Shown here one piece after another: positions 12,290 through 30,667 of a stretch of 64,000 bases of DNA. The stretch is from Macrolepiota albuminosa (lineage: Eukaryota > Basidiomycota > Agaricomycetes > Agaricales > Agaricaceae). The position numbers and the translations under genes are program-made. Location: NCBI GenBank assembly GCA_027475525.1, contig JAMWFC010000126.1, forward strand, positions 620,001 to 684,000, in the 5' to 3' direction. The stretch's first letter is position 1, and every line of letters starts with the position of its first letter. Below the pieces are notes generated by a model, which saw nothing but the letters and a program-made list of their open reading frames with translations, was not told the DNA's origin and did no database searches.

Positions 12290-12730
12290 TGACCCTCCCC
12301 AAAGCTTGATCACAAGCACCTCAGTCTGTTCAGGATCTTGAAGAAAGTCTCATCCCACATCTACAAGATCAAACTCCCCCTGGGACTCAAGGGTCTACAC
12401 CTGGTCTTTCATGTCTGCCTCCTGAAACAACACCCCCCAGACCCCTTCCCCAAACAACACTCCAAATCCCCTCCCCCAGTTGAGGTCAAGGACAAATACC
12501 ACTACAAGGTTGAAGATATCCTTGACTCCTGAAACATCTGTGGACAATTCCACTTCCTTATATGATGGAAGGGATACAGCCTGGAAGATGACACCTGAGA
12601 GCTATGCCAAAACCTCAAGGGCACACTTGACAAACTCTGGGATTTCCAGCAACAGCACCCAGAAAACGACCTTCCCAGGTGCAGGACTCACAGACAGCAT
12701 TAGTGGGCATAACTCCTGCCTCTGGGTCTA
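12290..12730 (+). pseudogene. Element I integrase C-terminus and decayed chromodomain
   Basis: [17 protein letters not shown] is the usual GPY/F-linked tail preceding a chromodomain. It is followed by [11 protein letters not shown], a TGA where Element II has Arg (SRNIRG), and further decayed chromodomain text. The chromodomain directs integration to modified chromatin in this retroelement branch. Homology to Element II ends just past 12,730; convergent coding from the antisense gene begins at 12,875. Confidence 0.75.
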
Positions 12731-13558
12731 ATATGGATTCAACTCCCACATATATTCCCCATCATTTTTCACTATTTCTCCTTTCTTACCCGTTTTAATA
12801 TTTCTATGTACGACAGGATCTGAGAAGATCCCTTCACTTATAGCCAGTCCCCCTTACACATGCTAATCACTCTCCTAAGTCCTGAAGCAACAAGTATATA
12901 TATATTTTTTGGTACTAGTACAATATTCTACAGAAAGCACAAACAAGGAACAAACGAGACACGTGAACAAGAAGGGGGCCCCTAATGCTGGACCTCTGAA
13001 CCCCCCTCCCTCAGCCAACCTCAGAAGTCCTCCCCAACCCTCCCTTGGACTGTGCTCCTGCAACATCTCCTCCGTCAACTGGTCCCAAGACGGGAGCTGC
13101 TCACCCTCATTCAGGACCTGCTTGAACCATGACCCAGGGGCAGGAACGTTCCTTCGGTAGTGCACAGCCACCATCCTCCCCAATAGGTTGAGGCCCTGCT
13201 TGACCCCAAGATTTGCCAACTCCAGTAGCAACCCCTCCTGTAGGGATGCAAATGCCATGGCTGCCCCATCCAGAAGCAGGCAATGCTCCTGAGCCCAGCC
13301 TGGAGGTGTCAGCACAGATCAAACCAGGAGAGAAGGGACACTCACTCAATGAGGCCATACACACAATCACAATGTCCCAATGCAGAGCCTCTACCAGCCC
13401 CACCCCCTGCCCCAGCCTGGCCCACAAGGTGTCTAGCTGGACTACTCTTGCCTCCTCCAACTCCTGGAGCACTGCCTCGCAATCCTCCTCCAACCCCCTC
13501 TGGAGTGCTGCCTCCTCACTTGCCCCCTCCTTGCACTCCCCCTGCTCCTGCTTGGCCC

Positions 13559-14270
13559 TGTCAGGTTCCGCTGAGTCGGGGGCTTTCCGGGAAAGCAATC
13601 GTCCTTACAATGCGGACTTGACCCACGAATACTCGGGTGTCTGGAACTCCGGGGCTAGGACTCCGGGGTTCAAGACGTGGACAGGGATAATCCTGGGAGA
13701 GGGAACTTGGTCCGGGGGTTTTGGGTTGCGAGTAACTGGGGGACTCAGGTGGGGGTCGAGTCGTGAATCGGAGGTTCTAAGACAAGACCAAGTTAGCAAA
13801 TTAAAGTCGCGAAGTGCGTATCAATCTTAGAGCACGTGAGTATTCAAGCGTACCAGTCAAATAGAGGGCACGCAACAATTCAAGTAACCAAGGGAAAACA
13901 GTGTAAGCAGTGTAATATCAAGACTAACAAATACAACGGGGAACTACGCTATAAGTACTATGGGACCAGGTCTCGGCGTTCCGGGGTGTCTGGGATGGGT
14001 TCCGGGAGTCATTGAGTAGCGGGCAGGGACTGATACCTGGATCACACGTGTGGGGCACGCAATCAATTGACACGGAGGGAGCTGTGATGTGTGATGCACG
14101 TGATCTGATCGTTGATTGGGGCTGGTGGCAGCTGATGGCAGTCCTTGATGCGTGTGATGGCGGCATCGGTGGTCGTGATGGCGGGGCGTGTCCTGTGGGG
14201 TCGGAGGGAGGGTCCCGGGTGGTGTTCCGGGGGTGTCCTGGGGTGAGTCTGGAGGGAAGGGGTCGTGACA
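13559..14270 (-). repeat. Element II 3' LTR
   Basis: In sense (minus) orientation starts TGTCACGACCCC at 14,270 and ends CGGAACCTGACA at 13,559; 712 bp. The R-start block TAATATCAAGACT (plus strand) is at 13,913-13,925. Compared with the 5' LTR it lacks 28 bp of a short direct repeat near 13,840. Confidence 0.92.
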
Positions 14271-14284
14271 TCACCCTCCCCTCA
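14271..14284 (-). promoter_or_regulatory. Element II polypurine tract
   Basis: Sense strand GAGGGGAGGGTGA immediately upstream of the 3' LTR, matching the Element I tract in sequence and position. The antisense gene must be transcribed away from here, so its promoter lies in this short gap or in the LTR read backwards. Confidence 0.7.
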
Positions 14285-15448
14285 GCGCCGAGACCCTCTG
14301 AGGCGCGCGTAGCTGGTGGTCTGGACCGGGGTCCAACCGTGGGATCCTGCACCTAACCTGCCACGTATTGAAAAAAAAAATTTACCATCAAACTCAACCA
14401 TGTCGCGTACGCCGACGCATTCCCCGACGCCCCTGCAAACTAACAAAGTCACACCCCTCATGGCTTGGGAAGCCTGGGATGTGCGGTATCGAGCCTGCCT
14501 GGACCGGGAGCACGTGGTGGCGCTCATGCAACAACGTGAGTATTTCCCACGCTGCTCGCTTGTCGTTACTGACCTTTCCTTTTCAGAACAACACAACATT
14601 ACTGCCTCGGAGGCAGGTCCCAGCCGGCTCCCAGAGCCTGTTCCTGATGCAGGTCCTGGGGGTCCTTTGGGGTCAGGCCCCAGTCGTCCCACGCCCACTT
14701 TTGCACGGATGACCGTGCATCCTCCCCGTCCCCTTCCCCCTCCTCGTTCTAGACTGGTCACCCCTCATTTCCATCGCTCTGGGATGGCAGTGGGGGCCAT
14801 TTCCGAGGTCCTGGAGACTCAGCACGTTGAGTGGGCCAGCACAACGCAGGAGGCCTTCAAGGGGGCGCTGGTGAGGCCCCAGGGCTTGCCTCCCCATGCC
14901 TGGTGTATCAGCAACGGGCCAGTAAGTGGCTTCGTACCTCCGGTCCCGTGGCTAATCCTTCCTAGTGTCTTCACTGCGCACATTGCTTGTTGACATGTTT
15001 GTTTGAGGCCCCGTCTGCCTCGTCCTGGCGCGACACTTCCGTGTGTGAGGCCTGTCGCCTCAATCATGAGTGATGTTCCGTTTCGGGCCTCTGGAGGGCA
15101 TATTGCATTTCGCGGGAGCAGGGTTGGCCGTTGGGAGGGATCACCCGGAGGATGGGGGTGGAGGAGAGGGATTGGGTCGTGGGGGCAGCAGCGGTTCAGG
15201 AGGAGGCGCTGGGGGTGGGGCGGGAGGACGGGGGGTTGTCCAGGTGGGCAGCCGGGGCCGGCCCGTGGTCTTGATCACACGCTGGGTGACCCAGTCTGGT
15301 GCCCCAGGGCAGGAGGAACGTGAGGGGCGCCCTGACAAGGGGAAACAGCGGGCGTCGCCTAGCACTTCCCCAGGGCCCTCCAAGAGGGTGCGCTTGCCCC
15401 CGGAGACCCCATCTCTGGTCTCCCACCCACACCTATCCTCAGCGACAT

Positions 15449-16140
15449 AGTATACCAAACCTAACACTAACTTAACCCTAACCTAACACTAGGTTTACCT
15501 TAACCAGGTTTAATCAACGTGGTTGCTCTGATGAAGGACCCCTATCACAGGGGGAGATACGTTGAGCCCTAAGGGCAATATACGGCTGCCTAATCACCAG
15601 CACTTCTATGCGCCCGCTTAAACCCTAGGCAAGGTCATCACCGAATAACCGATCGAATCACGGTGCGATCGTTCTCCTTGATTCGGCTAGTATAATGCGC
15701 GTCTATCACTGACAGTTGATAAGCGCCGAGGCCTTTATCAACAGACATCACTGATAATCACTGATAATCAGTGATAATCACTGATTGATCTGATAAATGA
15801 TAAGGTCTCCCTGACGATTCTGAAGAACAATAGAGTGTGGCAACCTTGTGGCAAACATGAGGCGCTCACAATATGCCATTGGATGGCTATTGTTCTATTG
15901 TTTTCTATTGTTCTTATTGTTCTTATTGTCTTTATTGTCAGCAGTAAGGCCCTGGCTCGGCGCCTGAGGCGTCTGAACTAGGAAACAAGTCAAACGTATG
16001 CAAATAGGCCTGATGAGACTTATATAAAGTCGAAACTGGTCGGTTGGGAAGTCCCCAGCCAGTTGCCAGCATACGACAACACCTCCAGACCTACCATCGC
16101 CCTCTCCTTCTCGCTTCGCTCGAAGTCGAGAGGCTCCTCC
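15449..16140 (+). repeat. PLE left pseudo-LTR
   Basis: Nearly identical to 19,822-20,569 from AGTATACCAAACC to GGCTCCTCC. It lacks a 56-nt GT...AG segment present in the right copy (19,850-19,905). It includes direct and inverted ATCACTGATA repeats near 15,750-15,800, a hairpin GTTGATAA...TTATCAAC near 15,716-15,743, TTCTATTGTT-type simple repeats near 15,890-15,940, and a TATATAAAG box at 16,021. Confidence 0.85.
16021..16029 (+). promoter_or_regulatory. PLE TATA box
   Basis: TATATAAAG, about 140 bp upstream of the first ATG of ORF1 (16,168). The same box is at 20,450-20,458 in the right pseudo-LTR, so the right copy could drive transcription outward into the antisense gene. Confidence 0.5.
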
Positions 16141-16167
16141 CTAACCCTAAGCTTGCGATCTTTCCTC

Positions 16168-17359
16168 ATGTCTCGTACTCAGCATTCTACCCACTCCCGG
16201 GCTGATACGGCTATGGCCGTGGATCGTGCGCCCGCTTATTCTTCGTCTTCACACTTTGATATTGACGATGACGATCGTGCTGATGCTGCAGCCGCTGCGT
16301 TGGCCCCCAGCGTCGACGATTCGTCGGCACGGTACGCCAAGTACCAAGCAGCTTCGACGTTGTCGGAGCTGCTCGCGGCACTCCCCTCAGAGTACCGTGT
16401 CCCCCTTCGTGATCCGCTTATGCAGATCCAGGCTGTGGCAAGGAAACTTGTCGCAGCAAGGTCCACCGTTGCTCGGTGGGAGGACCTTGCGTCCCGGGAC
16501 GAACTTCCCCCTGCTTTCAAGGGGAAGGCCTCTCCAAGCGTTCAGCTGTCGTCGCTGTTCGCTGGGACTGCCACCGGCCAGAACGATCTGGCCGATATTG
16601 CTAAGACCGCTGTCACTGGCAATAAGGCTGTGTTTACTGCTGCGCTCGCTGCAAAGCGTCGCGACGTAACGCACCTGGAATCTCTTTTACGTCCCCAGAA
16701 TATCTGGGATGGCCTCCATCCCACCATCTCTGCCCGGTGGGAGGCCATCAAAGGTTCAGCTCAACGGCCAATCTTTGCTAGCGACGTAAACGGAGAGGTT
16801 CAACTCTCTGGATGGGTTACGGACCCTGCTGCTCAGCAGGTGTACAACGCCCTCCGAGAGGACTTGGTCCCGATCGGCGTTCGCGCCTGGATCATGGTGG
16901 AGTCGCAGGAGCTCGCTTCTGCCTCCAAGAAGAAGGCCAAGTCCGCCCTCAAGAACGATGCTGACGTTGAGATGGGCGAGATCACTTCCGACTCTATTCG
17001 GAAAATGGTCTCCTCAGCCGTTAGCAAAGCTCTCGCCGGCAAAGTGAGTACTCCTACCATGACAGGAGCCATTGACCAACAACGAGGAACGTTTGTTCTT
17101 CGTTTCGGTTACGGCCTCTCTGTCTTGGGACAGGTTTCAGATCTATTACTGATCGATACTCTTCTTTTTCTTCAATCCTTAGGGTGGCCCAAAGAAGAAG
17201 TCCGGCACTCGCTCCGCGCCCACCTCTCGAGGTGGCCCCGGTCCTTCATCCTCGAAGACCGGCTCCGGCAAGTCCAAGAAGTCCGGCGCGGTGAAGAAGT
17301 CGAAGAAAGTCAAGTCCTCGACTTCGCAAAAGGCAAGGAAGGGGAAGGGGAAAGCCTGA
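16168..17359 (+). CDS. PLE ORF1, two exons, basic C-terminal tail
   Basis: Start at the first ATG after the pseudo-LTR (16,168; CTCATGTC). Exon 1 16,168-17,043, intron 17,044-17,182 (GTGAGT...TTAG, 139 nt), exon 2 17,183-17,359; 350 residues. Unspliced reading would change frame and give unrelated text, while splicing gives a Lys/Ser/Gly-rich tail (GGPKKKSG..., KKSKKVK, KARKGKGK) typical of nuclear localisation or nucleic-acid binding. The N-terminal part is acidic/alanine-rich (IDDDDRADAAAAAL), and the middle has PSEYRVPLRDPL and helical segments. No domain recognised. Probably an RNA-binding partner for the RT, by analogy with ORF1 proteins of other retroelements; this is inference. Confidence 0.65.
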
Positions 17360-17562
17360 TTCTCAGGCGTGTCATTTGTAAGTACGATGACCCCTCCACA
17401 TACCCTGACTGGTATCTAACAATACCACGACCATTAGTTACTTGAACATTATTATCTACTGTTCCGCTTAACGTACTATCTGCAGCTCGTTATCGTAGCT
17501 TTGTACATACATCGCCTAATGTAACGTTGCCTGACGACATTCATCTCCATCTAAGCACGGGC

Positions 17563-19671
17563 ATGAACTTCATGTTTCCGACTAAGCTGAATAAGGACTT
17601 AATAAAATCAGCTTGGGAAGACTTTGAAGCACGCCTTACATGGCGTCTTTACTTTGCTTTCAGTCAATATGGAATGGAGTCCGACTATGATCCTGACTAT
17701 GAGGTACCGCATGAGCGTAAAGCGAATCTACCTCAACTACCTACATATCTTCAGCGTGGCATTCGCGCAGGGAGGTCTTTTGTTGACCGATCGCTACTCA
17801 GCATCCCTGACCGATCTCCGAAGGGTCCATACTTCTCGCTAGACCCTAAGACGTACCGCCTGAAGAAGTTCTTGATTGACCATGACTACATTGTCACTGG
17901 CACCGACAAGAACCTCGGAATAGCTGTCAGTAGGCGAGACTGGATCATAGAAAAATCGTTAGAACTACTTAACAACCCAGAGGACTATCATATCCTCAAT
18001 CCGCTCATAGCTATAAGTAGACTAACTAAAACAGCGACTGACATGCAAGCAATTGCTAAACAGGCGGACAATATTGACCCCGCCGGACAACTGGGTAAAT
18101 TTTTCCGACATCTTATACCTACAAGTGTTAAGGGAGTCATCCCTGTGGAGAACTTTAAGATTCCGCAGTTTTACGGTATTCCTAAAATACATAAAACTCC
18201 GGTTAAATTTAGACCAATCATACCGTGTCACTCTGCCATCCAGAACCCAGCCGCTAAATATGTCAGTAAAAGACTTAAACCGATTATTCAATTGGCGCCT
18301 AGTATCATTCACGGAACGAAAGATCTAGCGCAAAAATTAAGCAGACTCTCGTTGCGGCCTGGTCGCCAGTACTTTATTGTCACTGGCGATGTCGTAGCTT
18401 TCTATCCGCACATAGATCTGACACGCGCTAAGACTTATGCCTTAGACGCATATGCAGAACACTATCTTGGACGCGTGATGATCGCAGGTGAGAACCTGCG
18501 TGAAAGCTTCGGCGACGAACTAATAGATGAATACAAGCTATTCTTCGACTGTCTTCGTGTAGGAAACGAGAATCTTATTGTACAATTTGAGGGTACATAC
18601 TATCACCAACACAGAGGTCTTGCAATGGGTGTTGCGGACTCTCCAGACTTGGCGAACATTTATGGACTGTGCTTTGAGAGGCACTTTGATATCCTCAACG
18701 ATGACCGAGTCCCGTTTTACGGTCGTTACATAGATGACTGCCTAGCTATTGTATATGCCTCCAGTGAAGCTGAAGCTATATCAATTGTAAGCAGAGTTAG
18801 ATTCTATAACTGTACAATAGAATGGAACGCGTCGGCTTTCTCACAGCCATTTTTGGATATGCTGATTTATCGAGACCATGATAATAAGCTACAGCATATG
18901 CCCTATCGGAAAACGCGTAACCATCATGAAAGAATCCCATGGCACTCCGCCCATCCACTAGATGTCAAGAAAGGCACCTTTTCGGGCGAGATGAGCAGGA
19001 TGGCCACCCTCTGTAGTAACTTAGACGTCTACAGGGATGCGGTAGGAGACCTTATTGGGTTGTACCGTGCGCGTGGCTATCCAGATAACTTGGTTAAAAG
19101 CTGGGCTAAATCCCAGTTCACTGAACGATGGAATAATAGGCTCAATGTCAAAGAGCAGCACGATCACGGCGCGTTCGTACTCAAATCTGAGTTTAACCAA
19201 ACGTGGGAATTCTTCAATGTCAAAGAACTTGGCAGGATAATAACTAGTAGCTGGCGAATGTGGTTAAACAAAGCCGAACTCGTGACTTGGAAAGAGCCCG
19301 AGCTTCGCCGTACGTTGGATCTAGGCGCTTTGCGCCAAGTGGACCCGGACGTGGCATTGGTAGTTGCAGTGTCACGGCCGCCCCTTGATGATTTGGTTCT
19401 TCTAGTCCCTGACGTCCGGAAATTAGATCTACTAGACAATAGATGGATTACTTCTCATAAGCGTACTCTTAACATTCGAGACTTAACTTTGTCTTGGAAA
19501 AATATTGTCATGCAACGGTTAGCAGAAGCCCAGACTTCACAACCCCAGACAAGGAAGGAGGAAACTCGAAAGCGTGGTCGGAGACAATCCGACGATGACA
19601 TCACGATCTTTCTACATCGACGAAGTCGGTCTCCTCCGGCACCTGGGGCCTGGCGAGCCGCTCCATTCTGA
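17563..19671 (+). CDS. PLE reverse transcriptase
   Basis: First in-frame ATG at 17,563 (702 residues); the frame is open back to 17,446, so a spliced or upstream start is possible. PLE RT hallmarks in order: TDKNLGIAV, YGIPKIHK, FRPIIPCHSAIQNPAAKYV, TGDVVAFYPHID (catalytic Asp), QHRGLAMGVADSPDLANIY, YGRYIDDCLAI (YIDD box), FLDMLIYRD and ERIPWHSAHPLDVKKGTF. The C-terminus (about 120 residues after the thumb) is Arg-rich and shows no GIY-YIG motif. No internal stop, so this is the best-preserved protein gene in the mobile part of the window. A candidate 60-nt intron (GTAAGT 17,378, CTAAC 17,416, TAG 17,437) lies in the leader. Confidence 0.88.
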   Translation: MNFMFPTKLNKDLIKSAWEDFEARLTWRLYFAFSQYGMESDYDPDYEVPHERKANLPQLPTYLQRGIRAGRSFVDRSLLSIPDRSPKGPYFSLDPKTYRLKKFLIDHDYIVTGTDKNLGIAVSRRDWIIEKSLELLNNPEDYHILNPLIAISRLTKTATDMQAIAKQADNIDPAGQLGKFFRHLIPTSVKGVIPVENFKIPQFYGIPKIHKTPVKFRPIIPCHSAIQNPAAKYVSKRLKPIIQLAPSIIHGTKDLAQKLSRLSLRPGRQYFIVTGDVVAFYPHIDLTRAKTYALDAYAEHYLGRVMIAGENLRESFGDELIDEYKLFFDCLRVGNENLIVQFEGTYYHQHRGLAMGVADSPDLANIYGLCFERHFDILNDDRVPFYGRYIDDCLAIVYASSEAEAISIVSRVRFYNCTIEWNASAFSQPFLDMLIYRDHDNKLQHMPYRKTRNHHERIPWHSAHPLDVKKGTFSGEMSRMATLCSNLDVYRDAVGDLIGLYRARGYPDNLVKSWAKSQFTERWNNRLNVKEQHDHGAFVLKSEFNQTWEFFNVKELGRIITSSWRMWLNKAELVTWKEPELRRTLDLGALRQVDPDVALVVAVSRPPLDDLVLLVPDVRKLDLLDNRWITSHKRTLNIRDLTLSWKNIVMQRLAEAQTSQPQTRKEETRKRGRRQSDDDITIFLHRRSRSPPAPGAWRAAPF

Positions 19672-19765
19672 AAGAAGCGGGTTTCAGTACTCTCACCCGG
19701 CTAGGGAGGAGTAGACTGCCCAGGACATCGGAATAGCCAACAAGTTCTCTCTTGCCGCCTTACGG

Positions 19766-19816
19766 TAAGTAGACGTGAACGTTGATATGGTGAGGACTAT
19801 GCTAACCTCATCATAG
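19766..19816 (+). other. Candidate 3' UTR intron of the PLE
   Basis: GTAAGTAGACG... begins near 19,766, GCTAAC is near 19,800 and TCATAG ends near 19,816, just before the right pseudo-LTR. Consensus 5' site, branch and 3' site in about 50 nt fit a fungal intron. Confidence 0.4.
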
Positions 19817-19821
19817 TTGGG

Positions 19822-20569
19822 AGTATACCAAACCTAACACTAACTTAACGTGCGTCAATCCCTTAGTAATAAGGGCTCTTAGCTGACAATCAGAATGCAT
19901 TACAGCCTAACCTAACACTAGGTTTACCTTAACCAGGTTTAATCAACGTGGTTGCTCTGATGAAGGACCCCTATCACAGGGGGAGATACGTTGAGCCCTA
20001 AGGGCAATATACGGCTGCCTAAGCACCAGCACTTCTATGCGCCCGCTTAAACCCTAGGCAAGGTCATCACCGAATAACCGATCGAATCACGGTGCGATCG
20101 TTCTCCTTGATTCGGCTAGTATAATGCGCGTCTATCACTGACAGTTGATAAGCGCCGAGGCCTTTATCAACAGACATCACTGATAATCACTGATAATCAG
20201 TGATAATCACTGATTGATCTGATAAATGATAAGGTCTCCCTGACGATTCTGAAGAACAATAGAGTGTGGCAACCTTGTGGCAAACATGAGGCGCTCACAA
20301 TATGCCATTGGATGGCTATTGTTCTATTGTTTTCTATTGTTCTTATTGTTCTTATTGTCTTTATTGTCAGCAGTAAGGCCCTGGCTCGGCGCCTGAGGCG
20401 TCTGAACTAGGAAACAAGTCAAACGTATGCAAATAGGCCTGATGAGACTTATATAAAGTCGAAACTGGTCGGTTGGGAAGTCCCCAGCCAGTTGCCAGCA
20501 TACGACAACACCTCCAGACCTACCATCGCCCTCTCCTTCTCGCTTCGCTCGAAGTCGAGAGGCTCCTCC
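19822..20569 (+). repeat. PLE right pseudo-LTR
   Basis: Direct repeat of 15,449-16,140, ending GGCTCCTCC at 20,569 and followed at once by antisense-gene exon 4. It carries the extra 56-nt GT...AG segment at 19,850-19,905. Confidence 0.85.
19850..19905 (+). other. Intron-like 56-nt segment present in only one pseudo-LTR
   Basis: Starts GTGCGT, has AGCTGACAATC (branch-like CTGAC) and ends TTACAG. The left pseudo-LTR joins the two flanks exactly (CTTAAC/CCTAACC), and the alignment is unambiguous, so the left copy looks like the spliced version of the right. Confidence 0.6.
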
Positions 20570-21483
20570 CCCCTGTCTGGGGAACTCCAAGCTGACGAAG
20601 TTGGGGCTCTGCAGAAGCAGGAGCAGGGGGGCCACGGGAAGGGGGCGAGGGAGGAGGCGGCAGCTGGGCGGGATCTGAAGGAGGGTCAGGAGGCGATGAT
20701 CCGGGACCTGGAGGAGGCCAGGGTCGCCCGAGGAGAAGTGGAGGCCGAGTTGGAGGCGCTGCAGGCGAGGCTGGGGCAGGGAGTGGGGAGCCCGGAGAGG
20801 ATCCCCTCGGAGCTGGAGTTGATGGAGGGGCTGCGCCATGATGTGGTCATTGCGCGCATGGTGTCCTTAAGTGAGTCCCTTGTCACTCACTCACCTCTGT
20901 CGCTAACGTCTTCAGGCTGGGCCTGGGAGCACCATCTGCTCCTGGACGGGGCTGCCACGGCACTCGCTGCGTTGCGGGAGGGGCAACGCCTGGAGGTGAT
21001 GACTCCCAGGGTGGAGCGCGGCCTTGATCTCTTGGGGCGGCTGGTGGCCGCACATCGGCAGAGGAACGTGCCCGTCCCAGGATCCTGGTTTGAGCGCGTG
21101 CTGGACGAAGGCAAGCCCCTCCTATTCTGGGATCTGTTGGCCAAGGAAGTGTGGCAGGAGCATGGCCCAGAGGGGATGGGGGAGGGTTTCCGGGGCTGGC
21201 CAAGGGGAGGGGAGGGTGAGGGTAGTTTGGGGCCCCAGCTCTAGGGGTCCCCGTTTTCTTGCTATCGCTTGTCTTGTGGTCTCGTAACTGTAGCATAGTG
21301 TACCTCTAAAAATGTATATACTCGGTTGTCCTGGATCAGTGAGAAGTATGAGTAAGGGGGCGAAGAAACTGAAGGAAACCAGAAAGAACACCTTGCCCAG
21401 ATTTCGGGGCACTACTACGAAGAGGTACTAAAAAAGAGTAAGATCTAGAAAGGGAAAGTAGAAAGTATACATGGGAGTTGAAT

Positions 21484-22890
21484 CCCTACTGAGCCCAGAG
21501 GCGGGGGTTATGCCCACTACTGCCGTCTGTGAGTCCTGCGCCTGGAAGGTCGTTTCCCAGGTGCCGTTGTTGGAAGTCCTGGAGTTTGTCGAGGGCGCCT
21601 TCGAGGTTTCCACGTGGTTCCCAAGTGTCGTCTTCCGGGCCGTATCCCTTCCACCGTACAAGGAAGTGGGGTCGTCCACGAATATTCCGGGAGTCGAGGA
21701 TGTCTTCAACCTGGTAGTGGTACTCGTCCTCGACTTCGACCGGGGGAGGGGGAGGGATCCGGGGGGTGTCGTTCCAGGAGGCAGACGTGGAATACCGAGT
21801 GCAGACCTTTTAGTCCCAGGGGAAGCTCGATCTTGTAGGCGTGGGATGAGACCTTCTTCAATATTTTGAACAGGCCGAGGCGCTTGTGATCGAGTTTTGG
21901 GGAGGGCCGGTGGGTGCGGAGGTGGTGTCGATCTAACCATACCTTTGTCCCAGGGGCCCAATCGGGGGTGTCTTCCCATCTCTGGTCGGCGTGTTTCACA
22001 TAGGCCTGGTTTGCGGTATCAATCTCTTCCTGGAGAAACTCGTTAAGGGACTAGAGATCCCAGGCGACCTCGTGGGCGGCGTGTGACAGGATGTCCCGGA
22101 GTGAGAGCGTCAGTCGAGGGTGGTATCCCTTGTTGGCAAAGAAGGGTGATACCCCGGTGGCAGAGTGTGGTGTGTTGTTGTAGGTGAACTCAGCCAGGGG
22201 GAGCTCGGCGCGCCAGTCGTCCTGCAAGTAGTTGACGTACAGTCGGAGGTACTGCTCAAGGGACTGGTTGACCCTTTTGGTTTGGCCGTCAGTTTCGGGG
22301 TGGTAGGTGGTAGAGAGGTTAGTTTTTACCTCAAGTGCCTTACACAGGGAAGTCCAAAACTTGGACACAAAGAGGGGGCCGTGGTCGGAAACGATGTTGT
22401 CTGGGAGGCCATGTTTGGCGAAGACGTGCTTGAGGAACAGCCGGACGAAGTCTGGGGCGGTATCCGTGGTGTGGCAGGGTAGGAAGATGCCCTGTTTGGT
22501 TAGCCTGCACACAATGACAAGAATGGCATCGAACCCTTCAGATTCCAGGAGTTCAACAATGTGGTCCAGAGATATGGAGGACCAGGGACATCGTCTGACC
22601 GGCAGGGGTTTCAGGAGTCCGTATGGTCGGTGTTGGGGGACCTTGGCCTGGAGGCAGGGTTCGCACAATCGAATGTAACGGGTTACGTCCTTCTTCAACC
22701 CTGGCCAAAAGTAAGTCCAGGAGATAAGCTGGAGAGTCTTACGTATTCCAGGGTGTCCCTGGAGCTTGTGGTCGTGGTGTTGACGGAGGACGTCGTAGCG
22801 GAGTTGGGCATGATCCGGGATGTAGATGCGGCCGTCCCGGAGGAGGAGTTTTTCATCAGGGGACAAGGAGAAGGCGGGGTCCCAGTCGGT
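21484..22890 (-). pseudogene. Element II integrase and chromodomain
   Basis: Zinc-binding N-terminus (HHDHKLQGHPG...CEPC, HHCC type) and catalytic core on 22,866-22,051, then a tail and a full chromodomain on about 21,760-21,484 ([34 protein letters not shown]). Catalytic D and D are in SLDHIVEL and VSDHGPLF; the third residue reads K in DGQTKRVN, whereas Element I has E. Loss of this Glu should abolish integration activity. One-base loss in a poly-C run near 21,755 and a stop near 22,050 break the frame. The chromodomain is complete and conserved, better than in Element I. Confidence 0.9.
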
Positions 22891-23812
22891 TCCATCGGAA
22901 GGGTTTCAGGGGTTGTGATCGGTGAAGTACTTGTCTCAGGGGGCGCAGCGGATCTGGCTCAGGGTCCCTTCATTGTTTAAGATTAGTACGGCATTCAGAT
23001 GTTTGGGAGGGATCACCACACGATGATTGAACACATTGCGTTCCGCCTCAAACGACTTCTTGGGATAGACGTCCGGTCGACAGGTGAGGGCATCGGGTTT
23101 AGCTCCGAGTCGTCCCGGGCGGTACTGGATTGTGAAGTCGTATTCTGAGAGAACCTTGGACCATCGGGCCTGTCGTCGACTAAGTTGCTTAGTTGTGGTG
23201 AAGTACTGCAGGTTGTTGTGATCCGAGTAGACCTGAATCTGGTGCTGGGCTCCCTCGAGGTAGGCTTGCCATTGTTTGAAGGCTTTGATGATGGCGAGGA
23301 GCTCCTTGTTGTAGATGTCGTAGTTGAGCTTGGCGTTGATCATGGACCAGGTGTAGAAGGCGACTGGCCAGGGCTCCCCACCGTCAGGTCCCATCTGCGA
23401 GAGAATCCTAGCGATGGCGTAGTCGGAGGCGTCGCATTCCAGGATAATCGGGAGGGCCGGGTCGTAGTGCTGGAGTACGGGGGCGGCCGTGAAAGCCTCC
23501 TTGAGCAGGTTAAAGACACTCTGGCACTTACTGTCCCAGTTCCAGGCGACGTCCTTTTGTGTGAGCCAGTTGAGGGGTTTTGTGATACCGGAGTAGTTAT
23601 CTATGAACCTCCAGTAGAAGTTAGCAAAACCCAAGAAGGATTGTACTTCCTTGACGTTCCAGGGCTGCGGCCAGTTGACAATGGCCTCAACCTTGTGGGG
23701 GTCCATGCGAACACCATTCGGGGATACTATGACGCTGAGATACTCAACCTCTTCCGTGTGGAATGAACACTTCTCGGGCTTGGCATGGAGGTTGTGCTCC
23801 CAGAGGTGTTCG

Positions 23813-23966
23813 AGGACTTGCCGGACATGTTTCTGGTGGTCCTCCTGCGAGTCGGAATAGATGAGGATGTCGTCCAGGTAGACGATCACAGGACTTGCCG
23901 GACATGTTTCTGGTGGTCCTCCTGCGAGTCGGAATAGATGAGGATGTCGTCCAGGTAGACGATCAC
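23813..23966. repeat. 77-bp offset exact tandem duplication (RT, Element II)
   Basis: Copies start at 23,813 and 23,890; breaks the RT frame just at the YLDD box. Confidence 0.85.
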
Positions 23967-24365
23967 GAAGACGTCGCTCATGTTGTGAAAGATGTCATTC
24001 ATGAAGTATTGGAACGTGGCGGGGGAGTTAGTCATTCCGAAAGGCATCACAAGGTACTCAAACAGACCATACCGCGTGTGGAACGTGGTTTTCCACTCAT
24101 GTCCTGGGGTGATGCAGACGTTGTTGTAACCAGAGCGAAGGTCAATCTTCGTGTAAACCTTGGCACTGCGGAGTCGATCGACCAGATTGCCAATGAGCGG
24201 GAGCGGGTAGCGGTTCTTCTTGGTGATCTTATTGAGTCCCTGGTAGTCGACACAGAGTCAGAGCGAGCTGTCCTTCTTCTTGGCAAATAGAACTGGGGCT
24301 CCGGTGGCGGAGGCGGAGGGTTGGATGAATCCCTTACCGAGCATTTCGTCGAGGTAATCCTTGAG

Positions 24366-24519
24366 GGCCCGGAGTTCGACCTCCGACATGTTGTACACCT
24401 TGCCGAAAGGGGGGGCAGCTCCTTCCTCGAGGTCGATGGTATGGCCCGGAGTTCGACCTCCGACATGTTGTACACCTTGCCGAAAGGGGGGGCAGCTCCT
24501 TCCTCGAGGTCGATGGTAT
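24366..24519. repeat. 77-bp offset exact tandem duplication (RT, Element II)
   Basis: Copies start at 24,366 and 24,443; breaks the RT N-terminal frame. Confidence 0.85.
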
Positions 24520-24655
24520 GGTCATAGGGGCGGTGAGGGGGAATCTCCTTGGCATCTCCTTTGGAGAATACATCAGCGAACTCATGATACTCCGGAGGAA
24601 CTACTTCTCAGAGGATTTGCTCCTCGGTTTTCTTTTCTGGGGGAATAGCGTCCCC

Positions 24656-25345
24656 TCATAGATGTTCTTCCGGGAGAGAAGGCAAGGTGTGTAGCTGAAA
24701 CGTGGGAGTTCCATCCTTCATGAGGTGGGCAAAGGGGGCGGCCCCAATGATCCTAATGTCAAGTGCGTTCGGGTTGATTGGGGTCGCAGATGCATCGGCC
24801 GAAGCGGGTATGACATGTGTCTGAGACCGGCCGGGGTAGTTCGGCTCTTTATACTTGTTCCGAGGAATGTTTGGGGGTCGATCAGGGGCCTTGCAGTCTC
24901 GGACAGGCGTGGGGGGCGCGGCAGTTGTCCTGGGGGTGTCGGGCGTTGGGTCGTTTCCTAGAGCCCGGAGGTGCACGGCGGTCGAGGGGTGGTCTTTGGG
25001 TCCTGGGAAGGTCATGGTAAGCGTCCTCCAATCGATGTCGGGGTTTGTGTTGCGCAGCCAGGGTAGTCCCAGCACCATCGGGGTCAATTCGTGAAGTCGC
25101 GTGACCAGGAAGTCAGAGGTGAACTCGTAGTCGTTGTCCAGGATCACGCGTCCCAAGTGAGACCTCTGGATGGGGCTGGAGGAGGAGGGGGTGCCGTCGA
25201 GGTGTTGCAGGCGGAGGGGCTGGTCAAGGGAGTCGTGGGGAAGGTTGAAGGCATCGCTGATGAAAACTCCGGTGGCTCTGCTGTCGATGAGGGCCGATAT
25301 CGGTCCCAGGGCACCGTCCAGCCTGGCATTGATGACGAAGGATTG
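24656..25345 (-). pseudogene. Element II second retropepsin-like domain (PR2)
   Basis: FVINARLDGALGPISALIDSRATGVFISDAF forms the active-site region in two frames joined at about 25,160 (D-S-R-A-T; Gly changed to Arg), followed by the open frame 25,156-24,656 with RVILDNDYEFTSDFLV and MVLGLPWLRNTNPDIDW. Layout repeats PR1 (26,019-25,358). A single TAG separates PR1 from PR2 in one continuous frame near 25,358, so both were probably in one polyprotein. Confidence 0.75.
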
Positions 25346-25357
25346 GGACGAGCGGGA

Positions 25358-26019
25358 CTAGAGTCTGGGGGGTGGTGGGGGCCCGTTCTTCGGGGTAGGG
25401 TTCAGGAAGTGGGAGATGTCGAAGGGGAGTTGCTGGTTGTTGGGTGTCGGGTCCCGGGTCAGGCGAAGGGTGAGATGTCGCCAATCAATGTGGGGGTTGG
25501 TGTCTTGGAGCCACGGGAGCCCTAGGACCAGGAGGGGTGGAGTTTGGTTATTAACATCTGGAGGGTGTGAGTCTGTCCGTTGGTGAAAGTAACGGGCATA
25601 CACACGAAATAAGTGACGTCCCCCGCCGTAGAGGCGTCTCCATCAAAGAGGCAGAGCCGTACCGGGACTGGGAGTCGCTGAGCGGGTTCCGGGGTGAGGG
25701 TAGACCATGCTTCATCGATGAAGTTGTCAGTGGCGCCACTGTCAACGAGGGTGTTGAGGGGGGTTCTGGAGGGGGTGAGGCAGGTTTTGAGAAGAAGAGA
25801 GTGCGAGGAGTGGGAGGGTAGATAAGCCATGAGGGTGTCCTGTATGAGTGTCATAGAGCGAAGATGTGAGACCGGGGCAGAGAAGATGTCAGAGTCGATT
25901 CCGCAATTTAGGGCATCTTCTGGATCTAAATTGCTGGGTTGTTTTCCGAATACTTGTAAGTGGCGTCCTCCCCTTTGAAGGTCCAGGTGGCACGTCCCAT
26001 GACCTGCCGTTGGGGGCAC
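25358..26019 (-). pseudogene. Element II first retropepsin domain (PR1)
   Basis: TLVDSGATDNFIDEAW gives the intact D-S-G-A-T active site; PVTFTNGQTHTLQMLITKL and LVLGLPWLQDTNPHIDW follow. There is a small frame change near 25,530. The N-terminal part (SVSHLRSMTLIQDTLMAYL) matches Element I at about 7,420-7,470. Catalytic residues look functional, unlike PR2. Confidence 0.82.
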
Positions 26020-26292
26020 TCGGAGATGAAGTGGTCTTTCTCACCGCAGAGTATGCAGACACCCTCCCTTCTCCGTCGGGACCTCCACCCAGGGTCGCCC
26101 CTTTTTTGAGAGCCGGTTGGCCCGGAGGGCCTCTTTGTCCCGTTCATCGGTGAAGTCAGGATCTTCGGAGTCTTCCGGAGGTTCCTCGGGGTTTGGTGCG
26201 TCGCCCGGGTCGTTGGCGGCCACGGCGGCGTTGAGTTGGGCCTGAGGGCGGGCGCCGCTGCCAGGGTTAGTATTGGGCGGGCCGCAACTCAC
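25926..26292 (-). pseudogene. Element II nucleocapsid zinc knuckle
   Basis: CILCGEKDHFISEC is a canonical C-x2-C-x4-H-x4-C knuckle in the frame 26,147-25,926, following an acidic/proline segment on 26,292-26,041. It corresponds to 7,034-7,285 of Element I and terminates Gag. Frames change once between the two segments. Confidence 0.75.
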
Positions 26293-28633
26293 TGGGGATC
26301 GGCCACCAGGGAACGCGGGAGGACCAGGGTTTTGGGTTTGGGGGTTGGGGGTTTCACCGGGGGGCCATGGGGGTCCTCCCCTAGGGTTCCAGAGGGTTCA
26401 GGAGTTTGAGTACTCGCTGCAGTCTTCCCAGTAGTGCTGGTCGATCTGCATGACGAGGGCCTTGTATCTGTCATAGGAGGGTTGTTTTGGGGCAAGTCAA
26501 AGGATGTCCTTGATATGTTGCAGCAGTGTGTGGCGGAGGGCATACTGGAGAGCACTGTAATTCCAGCCTGTCTTGTAAGCTTCCTTCTCGAAACATATGA
26601 TGAAGGTGGTGAAGCGTTCCTCAGAATGCATCTGGAAGTTGAAGAGGTTGTCCTCAGCCTCGGCCATGGTGTCGTAAATCCCGAACTTCCTGGAGAACTC
26701 GTCAACAAAAGCTTGCCAGCAGGAGAGCGCCGGGTTGTTGGGGTCGAACTGGATGAGGGCCGTGTAGTGGTCAAAGGCGATCCCCTGGAGGTACGAGGCG
26801 GCAAAGGCCACTTGGGAGCTGTCAACCTGAAATGTGAGTGGTTTCGCCTGAAACGTATTGAGACACTGAGTGAGGAATGTATGCCATTTTCAGAGGTCCC
26901 AGCCTGTGAATGCATCGGGTTTCTGAATGTCCAGACATCCTTTGCGGGTGAGAGCGTCGCAAGCGTCGTCTAGTCTGGCAGTGTTGCGGAGGGAAGGGCT
27001 GGCATTGTAGTAGTAGTAGTAGTAATGATTACCCCCCCTCCTTGTGGAGGAAAAGCACCGAGGGCAGGACCCCACCCGCCTGGAGGGCCTCCTCTGGGTG
27101 GCTCACCTGGGGGTCCACGCCTGCGGGGTCCATTGTCCCAGGGGGATTCGTTCCTGCTAGAAGGAGGCCCAGGTCTCCACGCAGGGGGTGGTGGAGGTGG
27201 GGGACCTGGGAGTTGTCCTCGAGGTTCGGCTGGGGGTGGCGGAGGCAGTCGGGGAGGGTTCAGCGGTGTCGGGTCAGGTGGAGGGGGGCCGGGTGCTGGG
27301 TCAGGTGCCGGATTGCGTGGGGGACATTCAGCCCAGGAGAGTCGTGCTTGCATCGGGGGTCGCGGGGGGTTCCGTAGGTCGAAGTGGGGTGGCGGATTGC
27401 GACAGAAACTGGGTTCTGGAGGGGCCGGGGTGGACATGGGAGGCGGTGCCAGAGCAGGTGCGGGCGCGGGACGTTGTTTGTTGTTGCAGTGCGTGAGCTC
27501 GTCGATGTAGCACAGCATGTCGTCCGTGCTGGGGGTGTCCACCTGGGCTCTACCGGGGTTCGCTGGGGACAGAGGTCGGGCGTTGTCCATTCGCGGGAGC
27601 AGTTTCAGGGGTCTCTGGGGCTGTCCCCAGGTCTCGAAGGTACTAGGAACGGAGTTAGCCCTGCAGCAAGTTGACAAGCCTACCGTGTGGGCAGCGGGTT
27701 GATCAAAGAGACCTCCAGTCAGATTGAGGGACCGCAATATGGCTGAGGCGTTTTGTCGCTCTTCCCGTTGTCATTGTTCCGGAGTGGGGGCCGCGGGGGC
27801 TGTTGGGGCTGCCGGGGCCAGTTCTGGGGGTTCTTGTCGAATGTGAATTGAGCGACCTGGGTCCGCGGGGTTGTTGAGGGGTCGAGGGGAGGGGGACGCG
27901 TGGACTTCGTTGAGCAGCTGCTGCAATTCTTCTTGAAGGATCGTATTGCGCCTATACTTTACCATAGTTTGCTCCGGGAGTTCTCCTCACGTGAGGCAAT
28001 CCCCAAATTCGACCAAGCAATGAGCCCATTCCTCTGGAGTGTCTTCGAAGTCGTTGTGCCCGAATTCTGTGAGCAGCGCCCTTGCCCGTTGCACGAAGTC
28101 CTCCAGCGAGATCCTGAATGAGTGGAGTACTTTGTCCCATTGCCGTTCATACTCCTCGAGGCGTTGTCATCCCATTGGCGAGAGAGGGGTTCGAGCAGGT
28201 GGAGCGGTGGCCGGGTAGTGACGAGGGGGATAGTCGGGGTAGGGGGGTCCTTGGGGCTCTCGGGGTTGGGGAACGGGGTGCTGGTAGCCGTAGTAGGGGG
28301 TGGGTGCAAAGGGGCCCTCGCTGGGGGGAATCGGGCGAGGCCCACTGGGTACTGGTGGGGTCTCTGGCAGGCCCCCGGGGATGCTCCGGTACGAGGGGAC
28401 CTCCATGGGTCGTGCCATGACTAAGTTGGGTGGAGGGGCCCAGCTGGCTGAGGGCCCCAGATCATAGAGGGATGGGTCGGGGGCCCAGTGGCAGTAGAGA
28501 TACAGAGGTTCGTACGGGAGGGGTGGATAGATGGGGCGGGGGGTCTGTGCAGAGTAATGATTGGGTACCGGGCACCCGTAGGGTCGGTCTGGTAGCCCGT
28601 GGAGTAGTAAGTGTGAATATATGTAGCCATCAT
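26289..28633 (-). pseudogene. Element II gag
   Basis: Start at ATG 28,633 (MATYIHTYY), followed by a Tyr/Pro-rich N-terminus and the EEYERQWDK / ALLTEFGHNDF block (about 28,180-28,000), a proline-rich central region (27,737-26,970) and a retrotransposon capsid core on 26,811-26,497 (SYLQGIAFDHYTALIQFD, FVDEFSRKFGIYD, FTTFIICFEKEAYKTGW). A GTAGTA-type triplet run sits at about 27,008-27,027. Frameshifts and stops (for instance after LSPMG) break it into at least five frames. Element I has lost the capsid core. Confidence 0.75.
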
Positions 28634-28650
28634 GAACAGTGTAAGGAGGG

Positions 28651-28663
28651 AGTCTTGATATTA
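28651..28663 (-). promoter_or_regulatory. Element II primer binding site
   Basis: Sense strand TAATATCAAGACT, immediately after the 5' LTR. It is the exact 13-nt reverse complement of the inferred R start inside the LTR (29,046-29,058), the arrangement used for self-priming by Tf1-like elements. Confidence 0.75.
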
Positions 28664-29403
28664 TGTCAGGTTCCGCTGAGTTGGGGGCTTTCCAGGAAAG
28701 CAATCGCCCTTACAATGCGGACTTGACCCACGGATACTCAGGTGTCTGGCACTCCGGGGCTAGGACTCCGGAGTTCAAGACGTGGACAGGGGTAATCCTG
28801 GGAGAGGGAACTTGGTCCGGGGGTTTTGGGTTACGAGTAACTGGGGGACTCGGGTGGGGGTCGAGTCGTGAACCGGAGGTTCTAAGGCGAGACCAAGTTA
28901 GCAAATTAAAGTTGCGAAGTGCGTATCAATCTTAGAGCACATGAGTATTCAAGCGTGCTAGTCAAAGCATGCCAGTCAATGCGTACCAGTCAAATAGAGG
29001 GCACGCAACAATTCAAGTAACCAAGGGAAAACAGTGTAAGCAGTGTAATATCAAGACTAACAAATACAACGGGGAACTACGCTATAAGTACTATGGGACC
29101 AGGTCTCGGCGTTCCGGGGTGTCTGGGATGGGTTCCGGGAGTCATTGAGTAGCGGGCAGGGACTGATACCTGGATCATGCGTGTGGGGCACGCGATCAAT
29201 TGACGTGGAGGGAGCTGTGATGCATGATGCGTGTGATCCGATCGTTGATCGGAGCTGGTGGCGGCTGATGGTGGTCCTTGATGCGCGTGATGACGGCATC
29301 GGTAGTTGTGATGGCAGGGCGTGTCTTGTGGGGTCGGAGGGAGGGTCCTGGGTGGTATTCCGGGGGTGTCCCGAGGTGGGTCAGGAGGGAAGGGGTCGTG
29401 ACA
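28664..29403 (-). repeat. Element II 5' LTR
   Basis: 740 bp, sense orientation TGTCACGACCCC (29,403) to CGGAACCTGACA (28,664), flanked outside by TSD GGCCC (29,404-29,408). U3 extends to about 29,059; R-U5 covers the rest. Confidence 0.93.
29046..29088 (-). promoter_or_regulatory. Element II LTR promoter: TATA box and R start
   Basis: Sense CTTATAG at 29,088-29,082 lies 30 nt upstream of AGTCTTGATATTA (29,058-29,046). That spacing fits a TATA-directed start at or just before the sequence that pairs with the primer binding site. Both elements and all LTR copies keep this arrangement. Confidence 0.65.
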
Positions 29404-30653
29404 GGCCCACTCCAAACACTTCTGCAGGACCCCCACATCAATGTCTAGTGGCCTCCTGGACAAGGGAGAAAAGGCCTCCAGAGAAAGATGCGCTGAGAAG
29501 GCCAGAATTGGGGTCTCTACAGGCAGATGTGCCCTCTTGGAAGGCCCCGAGAAGGGGCTAGGCAACATCCGCCACTTCCCCTTATTGAGGCACCCCTGAG
29601 TACCGGACCAGGTTGCCCAGCATGTGATCAACATCACAGGCCGGCCCTGGCCCCCACCTGGCTGACCCCCCTCTCCCCTGCCCCACCCTCAGAAACTCCC
29701 GTGGGCACCTCCTCCAAATCTCCTTCCAGCTTTGCCATCCAGTCTTTCTCTTCCACCCCCATCCTCCAGGTCATGCCCCCCAGCGGCCACCCCTGCTTCT
29801 GCAAGACACAATAGGCCCTCCACAATGCCGAAATGGAGCACCTCTCATGGTTGAGGTGGCACGCCTTGCACACAAATATGTTCCTCTAGGTAGAGGAGCC
29901 CAGGGCTTCGAATAGACAAGGCACAATATGACGGGTGCAATGTAAGCACTGGAACCGATGTCAGCAGCAAATCAAAGGTACAGAGATACTTACCGGCCCA
30001 TTGCCAATGCACCACACATGGTGATGTAAACTCTGGGGCCTCTTTAGGGCCCTCTAAAAGGCCTTCTGTGAGTTGTCCTCACACAAGAGTCTCTGATTTT
30101 CTAAGACCACTAAAATGGCCCCCACAGCCATGCCAGAGCGACGATAGCGAGAAGCCACAAGGCAGAGTTGTGGAGAAGGGTGTGGGTGAGGGGAGCCCAC
30201 AGTCATCCATGCCAGGGCAGGCACAGGACAACTGGGACCTGCCTCAGGGGCAGGTTTGGGAATTGACCTGAGAGGACTAAGCGAGCCTGTCTCAGGATAA
30301 GGCTCTGAGAGATGGCTGGGACCCACTTTCAGAGCAGAAGTGTGGTGTTGTTCTAAGAAAGGGAAGTCAGTCGTGGTAAGTGGGGCAAGCACAGATAAAC
30401 TCACATTGGACTAGTGCCACCATGCACTCACAGTCAAGCCAACACCAGTACTTTGCATTCCAGGCCTTCTACATGACCAGGAGGGCAATTTTATTTGTAG
30501 GTGGAGGCATCGGAGAATGTGTTGGCATGTGTGACATGTCAAGTTTGATGGTAAAATTTTTTTTTTTGCTATGTGTCAGGAGGTGAGACAATTCCCATGC
30601 TTGACCCTCCAGTCTGAGCTACTGACAACACGTGCCTTGGAGAGTCTTGGTGC

Positions 30654-30667
30654 TGAGGAGGGGGTGA
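30654..30667 (+). promoter_or_regulatory. Element I polypurine tract
   Basis: GAGGAGGGGGTGA directly precedes the 3' LTR (TGTCACGACC at 30,668). Element II has the near-identical GAGGGGAGGGTGA at the same place. Purine tracts here prime plus-strand DNA synthesis. Confidence 0.75.

What the first reader, a model, noticed from the sequence alone, without database searches (positions are those of the whole stretch)
12875..30537. Family-A chromoviruses carry a conserved, multiply spliced gene antisense to pol, next to the 3' LTR
Two diverged copies (Element I minus strand 30,537-12,875; Element II plus strand 14,400-21,244) share start context, four intron positions, reading frame and protein blocks, and both sit between the chromodomain and the polypurine tract, inside TSD-bounded elements. 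Introns persist because they are antisense to the genomic RNA and so invisible to splicing of it. An accessory antisense gene with this structure is not something I know from fungal LTR elements; antisense genes exist in some retroviruses and in plant gypsy elements. It could regulate the element or its host chromatin.
Basis: partly seen in the sequence, partly recalled or inferred. Interest (0 to 1): 0.9.

Follow-up and report, generated by a model that had tools for sequence, protein, structure and literature searches.

The report
Hidden antisense gene in fungal retrotransposons
A large family of jumping genes in a mushroom-type fungus carries, written backwards on its opposite strand, a real spliced gene for a probable DNA-binding protein that is kept intact by selection yet comes in many very different versions, which hints that the element uses it to control itself or to counter its host.

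Summary
Both Ty3/gypsy chromoviruses in the window carry a gene antisense to pol, between the chromodomain and the polypurine tract, with three introns (not four). Both window copies are broken, but the genome holds hundreds of relatives; all 51 last-exon hits with a listed integrase hit within 3 kb lie antisense and downstream of it. The gene sits in elements with identical LTRs, splices to a 546-aa frame and shows dN/dS 0.17-0.33 and conserved splice sites. The protein has six near-invariant cysteines spaced like a fungal Zn2Cys6 cluster (longer loop, below Pfam's cut-off), a basic NLS-like stretch and a coiled coil. The arrangement is known in fungi (Boty's brtn), so this is a new variant. 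Function, probably a self-acting DNA-binding regulator, is inferred.

The parts
5292..6140 (+). 5' LTR of element A (TSD GTAAG 5287-5291)
8799..12700 (+). decayed gag-pol of element A (PR, RT, RNase H, integrase; chromodomain about 12494-12650); bounds approximate
   Evidence: Pfam; frames
12960..13299 (-). element A antisense gene, exon 4 (homologous part; the open frame runs on to about 12875)
13300..13345 (-). element A antisense gene, intron 3 (46 nt, GT..AG)
13346..13558 (-). element A antisense gene, 3' part of exon 3 (coiled coil), cut by element B
13559..14270 (-). 3' LTR of element B (TSD GGCCC 13554-13558)
14271..14283 (-). polypurine tract of element B (approximate)
14400..14535 (+). 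element B antisense gene, exon 1 (ATG 14400)
14536..14586 (+). element B intron 1 (51 nt, phase 1)
14587..14921 (+). element B exon 2
14922..14965 (+). element B intron 2 (44 nt, phase 0)
14966..15450 (+). element B exon 3, 5' part: six-cysteine cluster (with an in-frame TGA in this copy) and basic NLS-like stretch; end approximate, cut by an insertion
15477..20570 (+). third element inserted in B's antisense gene; 665-bp direct terminal repeats 99.85% alike; bounds approximate
20571..20870 (+). element B antisense gene, exon 3, 3' part (coiled coil)
20871..20915 (+). element B intron 3 (45 nt, phase 1)
20916..21244 (+). element B exon 4 with stop (WAxEHxLLLDGA block)
21500..25400 (-). pol of element B (PR, RT, RNase H, integrase; chromodomain about 21560-21716), convergent with the antisense gene; bounds approximate
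28664..29403 (-). 5' LTR of element B (TSD GGCCC 29404-29408)
29404..29948 (-). element A antisense gene, exon 3, 5' part (cysteine cluster)
29949..29993 (-). element A intron 2 (45 nt)
29994..30352 (-). element A exon 2 (in-frame TAG)
30353..30404 (-). element A intron 1 (52 nt)
30405..30537 (-). element A exon 1 (ATG 30537; in-frame TAG)
30655..30667 (+). polypurine tract of element A (approximate)
30668..31224 (+). 3' LTR of element A (TSD GTAAG 31225-31229)

Best explanation
SHOWN: the gene is a bona fide, intron-bearing accessory gene of a recently mobile chromovirus family. It lies antisense, its ATG about 130 bp from the 3' LTR, convergent with pol, kept by purifying selection, and much more diverged than the gag-pol backbone around it. 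INFERRED: its start lies so close to the LTR that transcription would have to begin in the 3' LTR or the leader of about 130 bp. The spliced mRNA makes a nuclear protein with a Zn2Cys6-like DNA-binding head, an NLS and a coiled-coil dimerisation part. That protein binds its own element's LTRs (candidate repeated motif TCCGGGG) and regulates element transcription, as an autoregulator of copy number and timing or as an LTR activator. Copy-choice recombination during reverse transcription swaps the module between elements, and selection favours having different versions, as with phage immunity regions.
For: Context: 51 of 51 last-exon hits and 60 of 61 exon-2 hits that have a listed integrase hit nearby are antisense and downstream of it; in 20 of 20 loci cut around the best last-exon hits the 3' end of pol lies on the opposite strand within 1.5 kb (two of the 20 are the window's own copy and its duplicate). 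Mobility: the element of L061 has two LTRs of 797 bp, both 100% to the query, 10.5 kb apart; LTR pairs at 97-100% also flank 8 of the 9 other copies that share its exon-2 match score, and one LTR is listed for the ninth. Coding: 546-aa spliced frame; dN/dS 0.17-0.33 per exon piece, variability at codon position 3 being 1.3-3.3 times that at positions 1 or 2; splice sites GT in 49 of 54 and 50 of 52, AG in 47 of 54 and 49 of 52, for introns 1 and 2. Cysteines kept at 43-45 of 45. Hyperdiversity: 7 elements, median dS in gene pieces 0.75-1.07 versus INT 0.21, RT 0.26, gag/PR 0.32; 21 copies, last-exon dS above INT dS in 194 of 210 pairs, INT-gene distance correlation only 0.16. LTR motif: TCCGGGG 7 times, all one orientation, in the L061 LTR against 0.4 expected; 4-7 in 6 of 6 measured LTRs and 5 in window B's.
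Against: No RNA, protein or DNA-binding data exist here. The cysteine motif misses Pfam's Zn_clus cut-off (16.6 versus 21 bits) and has a 15-residue middle loop; a genome-wide PF00172 search gave 21 places, none of them one of the listed gene hits (compared by eye). The AlphaFold model of a Termitomyces relative is poor (pLDDT 52.7) and matched no PDB fold. TCCGGGG was first noticed by eye; it is also raised in gag-pol (9 against 3.8 expected, 1.7 per kb versus 8.8 in the LTR); it is not the single commonest 7-mer in L062, L063, L065 and L068; it occurs 3 times in L067, once in element A's LTR (TCTGGGG 5 times there) and never upstream of the second-carrier gene; LTRs with very different gene versions share it, so version-specific recognition is not seen. 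Under the last exon a sense frame has fewer stops than the gene's own frame (1.6 versus 2.6 per 1000 codons), and in the NLS piece a shifted antisense frame has none. A related gene in a second repeat family without pol shows the gene does not need chromovirus LTRs.
Confidence: 0.5

Rival explanations
1. Sequence-specific anti-silencing factor: the protein binds repeated motifs in the element's noncoding parts and strips silent chromatin or DNA methylation, as VANC proteins do for plant VANDAL elements. Hyperdiversity then reflects an arms race with host silencing.
For: Fast-diverging element-encoded putative DNA-binding protein; repeated LTR motif. VANC proteins bind noncoding regions, their targets form tandem repeats and diverge rapidly (abstracts of PMC5735166 and PMC10398659). 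Recurrent R-to-stop change in the motif (4 of 45 copies) is compatible with CpG decay and so with CpG methylation.
Against: No homology to VANC was tested; the LTR motif does not co-vary with gene version; no methylation data.
Confidence: 0.2
2. Co-factor of the element life cycle (nuclear import, integration targeting or Gag partner) rather than a transcription regulator.
For: NLS-like basic stretch KGKRRAS...KRAR largely shared with Termitomyces relatives; a review proposes such roles for plant antisense ORFs (passages of PMC7264820).
Against: Does not by itself explain six conserved cysteines in DNA-binding-type spacing nor deep version diversity.
Confidence: 0.15
3. The antisense transcript, not the protein, is the functional product (dsRNA or transcriptional interference).
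For: Convergent arrangement with pol; antisense RNA roles are proposed in PMC7264820.
Against: Purifying selection on amino acids, conserved cysteines and conserved splice sites need a protein.
Confidence: 0.06
4. Transduced host gene riding as a passenger, with no role for the element.
For: Same gene architecture also in a second repeat family; three spliceosomal introns suggest an origin as an ordinary host gene.
Against: At least 150 scored copies, dN/dS 0.17-0.33, an intact frame in an element with identical LTRs. No single-copy host homologue was seen, but none was systematically sought.
Confidence: 0.05

Closest known systems
brtn of Boty-like elements, Botrytis cinerea and Sclerotinia (Zhao et al. 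2011; not read, seen as cited in passages of PMC7264820, PMC8365987, PMC4227169)
   Same: Fungal gypsy element with chromodomain pol; antisense gene between pol and 3' LTR
   Different: Ascomycete. I have no BRTN sequence, so homology, introns and cysteine motif were not compared
Plant antisense aORF-3R: Grande gene23, RIRE2, PvRetro13, Retand ORF4/TRP28 (passages of PMC7264820 and PMC11963269)
   Same: [quoted passage not shown] some proteins nuclear or predicted DNA-binding
   Different: Different proteins as named there; the word 'intron' does not occur in the main text of either paper; here three conserved introns and hyperdiverse versions on a near-uniform backbone
HTLV-1 HBZ-type antisense retroviral genes (passages of PMC11963269, PMC7264820)
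   Same: Antisense gene, nuclear protein; HTLV antisense promoter inside the 3' LTR
   Different: Recalled: HBZ is a bZIP protein; no sequence relation tested
VANC anti-silencing proteins of VANDAL elements (abstracts PMC5735166, PMC10398659)
   Same: Element-encoded, fast-diverging; would work on repeated motifs in noncoding element DNA
   Different: Plant elements (DNA transposons, recalled); function here only hypothetical
Fungal Zn2Cys6 (Gal4-type, recalled) regulators, PF00172
   Same: C-x2-C-x6-C ... C-x2-C-x6-C, then linker and coiled coil
   Different: 15-residue loop, below Pfam cut-off, no further regulator domain found by Pfam

Membership tests
Chromovirus (chromodomain Ty3/gypsy) | PR-RT-RNase H-integrase order with Pfam domains | tested here: met
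   RVP_2, RVT_1, RT_RNaseH and rve in both A and B (rve below cut-off in each); Integrase_H2C2 in B only, among the ten pieces scanned
Chromovirus (chromodomain Ty3/gypsy) | Chromodomain at the C-terminus of integrase | tested here: met
   PF00385 E=1.6e-15 in the pol end of L061; same block read by eye in A and B
Antisense aORF-3R arrangement (Grande/RIRE2/Retand/Boty-brtn kind) | ORF antisense to gag-pol, between pol and 3' LTR | tested here: met
Antisense aORF-3R arrangement (Grande/RIRE2/Retand/Boty-brtn kind) | Present and coding-conserved across family copies | tested here: met
   77 of 137 listed integrase hits have a listed gene hit (lower bound, lists capped)
Antisense aORF-3R arrangement (Grande/RIRE2/Retand/Boty-brtn kind) | Transcribed antisense to gag-pol | not testable with these tools
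   No RNA data
BRTN protein family | Sequence homology to BRTN | not tested
   BRTN sequence not retrieved
Zn2Cys6 cluster (PF00172) | Six cysteines, C-x2-C-x6-C-x(5-12)-C-x2-C-x(6-8)-C (pattern recalled) | tested here: inconclusive
   C-x2-C-x6-C-x15-C-x2-C-x6-C, six Cys at 43-45 of 45; middle loop longer than the recalled range
Zn2Cys6 cluster (PF00172) | Pfam gathering score | tested here: not met
   16.6 bits (cut-off 21) for the L061 protein; 17.3 for P0007 and 10.3 for P0006; genome search with PF00172 finds 21 places, none a listed gene hit
VANC-type anti-silencing factor | Removes silent marks from its own element | not testable with these tools
   Functional analogy only

The most novel reading that the evidence does not exclude
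A retrotransposon immunity/anti-silencing cassette: an interchangeable, antisense, intron-bearing gene whose many deeply diverged versions are shuffled by recombination onto one near-uniform element backbone and a second repeat family, each version acting on its own set of elements through repeated LTR motifs. That would be the retrotransposon counterpart of swappable phage repressor modules or plant VANC systems.
Probability: 0.2. Interest if true: 0.88.

Novelty: new variant of a known kind. Interest (0 to 1): 0.63.

Why it matters
Antisense genes next to the 3' LTR are known from plants and an ascomycete element, but what they do is unknown (PMC7264820). Here there are hundreds of candidate copies in one genome, a recognisable candidate DNA-binding motif, selection on the protein, and many natural versions on almost the same backbone. 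This makes the open question (why do retrotransposons keep antisense genes?) directly testable by binding and reporter assays, and suggests selection for version diversity inside a mobile element. Introns in a retroelement gene are also a clean marker: they can survive only if the replicating RNA is the other strand.

Tried and rejected
Rejected: chance ORF (selection, splice sites, copy number); a sense-strand env-like gene (sense frames carry more stops than the gene's frame in five of six exon pieces; in the last exon one sense frame does better, open in 46 of 53 against 41 of 53); a fourth intron; copia identity for the inserted 15477-20570 element (my first assumption, not supported: no Pfam hit in its two long frames). 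A marker query I called IN_C (window 21431-22015 -) proved to be out of frame with pol; its dN/dS of 2.1 serves as an unplanned negative control, and it was used only as a position marker. Led nowhere: homologue search with residues 108-228 (0 of 116 candidates); profile search (5 of the same Termitomyces proteins); PDB sequence and fold searches; paper searches for an Agaricomycete or Zn2Cys6 precedent (one search returned nothing) showed none that I recognised in the rows listed; they cover open-licence PMC papers only. The Mantel correlation of LTR with the cysteine exon, 0.71 (n=15), against 0.37 for exon 1, 0.48 for exon 2 and 0.35 for the last exon, is suggestive but was one of 18 comparisons and is confounded by proximity and relatedness.
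Full report
OBSERVATION. The window lies in an unnamed 100.1-Mb genome of 129 contigs. Two gypsy elements are nested. Element A (+ strand; LTRs 5292-6140 and 30668-31224; TSD GTAAG) was hit by element B (- strand; LTRs 13559-14270 and 28664-29403; TSD GGCCC), and B by a third element (15477-20570). In both A and B a gene runs antisense to pol, between the chromodomain and the polypurine tract. Three introns are shared, GT..AG in both copies: 52, 45 and 46 nt in A; 51, 44 and 45 nt in B. I do not find a fourth. Both window copies are broken by stops and a frameshift.

HOW COMMON. Exon 2 of B gives 150 scored matches (726 candidates), 84 to 60% identical apart from the window copy and its duplicate; the last exon also gives 150 (789 candidates). 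Only the best candidates are scored, so these are lower bounds. In 28 loci cut around the best exon-2 hits outside the window copy and its duplicate, 27 have all five query pieces in order on one strand (the five pieces come from four exons). In 20 of 20 loci around the best last-exon hits (two being the window copy and its duplicate) the end of pol lies on the opposite strand within 1.5 kb, and integrase itself in 19 of 20. By coordinates, 51 of the 150 last-exon hits have a listed integrase hit within 3 kb, and all 51 are antisense and downstream; of 150 exon-2 hits 61 have one within 4.5 kb, 60 in that arrangement and 1 opposite but upstream; 77 of 137 integrase hits have a listed gene hit on their 3' side (lists truncated, so absence means little). 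Ten longer stretches around gene hits were read (L059-L068), picked by me from the hit lists and not at random: nine show the arrangement, the tenth (L064) does not and is discussed below.

YOUNG ELEMENTS CARRY INTACT GENES. L061 (C6:2193898-2203798) gives a 546-aa protein after removal of introns of 49, 47 and 48 nt. Ten places, this one included, share one exon-2 match score. Searching the L061 LTR (797 bp) finds two copies at 100% on C6, 10.5 kb apart around this gene, and LTR pairs at 97-100% about 10 kb apart at the other same-score copies on C124, C26, C78, C104, C65, C88, C115 and C110; for C86 one LTR is listed (40 of 1764 candidates scored). A strict script found an intact spliced frame in 13 of 37 loci with a recognisable start (of 45 loci given; several are near-identical).

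SELECTION AND SPLICING. Across 28-43 distinct copies per piece, median dN/dS is 0.17 (exon 1), 0.27 (exon 2), 0.19 (cysteine part), 0.30 (NLS part), 0.33 (coiled coil), 0.17 (last exon); pairs with dS outside 0.05-1.0 were dropped, and copies with stops (1 to 12 per piece) were kept with the stop codons skipped. The loci were found by protein similarity, which favours conserved copies. Variation is highest at codon position 3 in every piece, least clearly in the coiled coil (0.35 against 0.22 and 0.26). Intron 1: GT 49 of 54, AG 47 of 54, mostly 49-52 nt; intron 2: GT 50 of 52, AG 49 of 52, mostly 44-48 nt; intron 3: a GT(A/G)A site upstream of the last exon in 55 of 57 by a loose pattern. The gene's frame has the fewest stops of six in exons 1 and 2, the cysteine part and the coiled coil, but not in the NLS piece (a shifted antisense frame has none) or the last exon (one sense frame has 1.6 against 2.6 per 1000). 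Six cysteines are kept in 43-45 of 45 copies. Pfam Zn_clus scores 16.6 bits against a cut-off of 21, and a genome-wide search with that family found 21 places, none a listed gene hit, so I call the motif Zn2Cys6-like and not a member.

THE GENE IS MORE DIVERGED THAN ITS CARRIER. In alignments of L061 with six close elements (L059, L062, L063, L065, L066, L068), pol and gag are 89-96% identical and LTRs 85-92%, but gene exons mostly 70-88% (exon 1 up to 94%), introns 48-92% and the gap behind the gene 69-82%; L067 is a more distant element throughout. Over those seven elements median dS is 0.75-1.07 in the gene pieces but 0.21 in integrase, 0.26 in RT/RNase H and 0.32 in gag/protease. In a second, overlapping set of 21 copies, median dS is 0.20 for integrase and 0.77 for the last exon, larger in the gene in 194 of 210 pairs; pairs such as L062-L066 have integrase dS 0.08 with gene dS 1.6. 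Integrase and gene distances correlate weakly (r 0.16, reached by 757 of 5000 permutations). Inference: modules have been exchanged between lineages by recombination, and old versions have persisted. Selection for diversity is a hypothesis; unequal homogenisation of the backbone would look similar. The sets were partly picked for gene divergence.

RELATIVES AND A SECOND CARRIER. The protein search returned 6 Termitomyces proteins (32-39% identical; only the 7992 candidates sharing most words were scored). They share the basic stretch and the WAREHxxLLDGA block; two (P0006, P0007) keep all six cysteines, P0008 has lost one, and the other three lack or scramble that part. A Termitomyces query finds further diverged copies in this genome. 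One group (L064, L069, L071) has the same cysteine spacing and the same three intron positions (read by eye in L064), but no family-A pol in 12.5 kb around L064 or 10 kb around L071, both of which contain runs of N. Pairwise matches together span about 6.4 kb, though no one pair spans it all, and two probes each hit about 40 scored places. No LTRs were found by self-comparison. What it is remains open.

MECHANISM. Cysteine head, basic stretch and coiled coil in that order recall Gal4-type regulators (recalled). The L061 LTR holds TCCGGGG seven times, all in one orientation, against 0.4 expected in shuffles; five other LTRs hold 4-5 and window B's 5; gag-pol holds 9 against 3.8 expected, the gene 3 against 2.0. 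It is the commonest 7-mer in the L061 LTR and tied for it in L059, but not the single commonest in L062, L063, L065 or L068. CGG triplets are known targets of Zn2Cys6 proteins (recalled). The motif was spotted by eye and does not vary with gene version. AlphaFold on a Termitomyces relative supports only long helices at 257-331 and 338-394 (pLDDT 50-83) and gives no PDB match at E below 7. My best model is self-directed regulation of the element; the anti-silencing model is the most interesting rival.

KNOWN OR NEW. [quoted passage not shown] PMC11963269). Boty-like gag-pol has a CHROMO domain and the element carries brtn (passage of PMC4227169). I did not read Zhao 2011 itself. A survey of fungal chromoviruses (PMC2864245) has no occurrence of 'antisense' or 'additional ORF' in its main text. 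So the kind is known; what I could show here and did not see described in the passages read is the intron-bearing, cysteine-cluster protein, the exchangeable diversity and the second carrier.

Noticed in passing
window 5604/5681, 23813/23890, 24366/24443, 30859/30936, 40561/40638, 50049/50126, 59143/59220 and others; also L060-L064: Exact or near-exact tandem duplications of almost exactly 77 bp in unrelated sequences. The uniform length suggests a k-mer (k=77) assembly artefact; it causes frameshifts, e.g. in L063's last exon.
   Followed up: partly
window 15477-20570: Element inserted in B's antisense gene: near-identical 665-bp direct terminal repeats, telomere-like TAACCC-type repeats at its left edge, and a 741-aa frame with GIPKIHK and YIDD motifs but no Pfam or PDB-sequence match. 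By recalled motifs it looks like a Penelope-like, possibly telomere-associated (Coprina-type) element rather than copia.
   Followed up: partly
G000:C27, window hits again 174,194 bp further on: Hits on this contig recur with identical scores at a fixed offset (e.g. 460395/634589, 466721/640915, 391741/565935): a large recent duplication or an assembly duplicate.
   Followed up: no
window 39273-50392: Another gypsy-like element (RT, RNase H, integrase) with about 230-bp 97% direct repeats; behind integrase it has two long sense ORFs (46950-48170, 48858-50042) without Pfam match.
   Followed up: no
L060 (G000:C89:2657001-2666901): A copy in which an LTR 98% identical to the 3' LTR abuts a truncated integrase, leaving LTR - part of integrase - antisense gene - LTR: a possible deletion derivative that keeps the antisense gene.
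   Followed up: no
L064, L069, L071: Second multicopy repeat carrying the diverged antisense-gene homologue, about 6.4 kb or more, with an inverted repeat in its upstream part; type of element unknown.
   Followed up: partly
codon 193 of the gene (L061 numbering), window 14966-15060 in element B: 4 of 45 gene copies are stopped at the same arginine codon in the cysteine motif, compatible with CpG decay (CGA to TGA).
   Followed up: no
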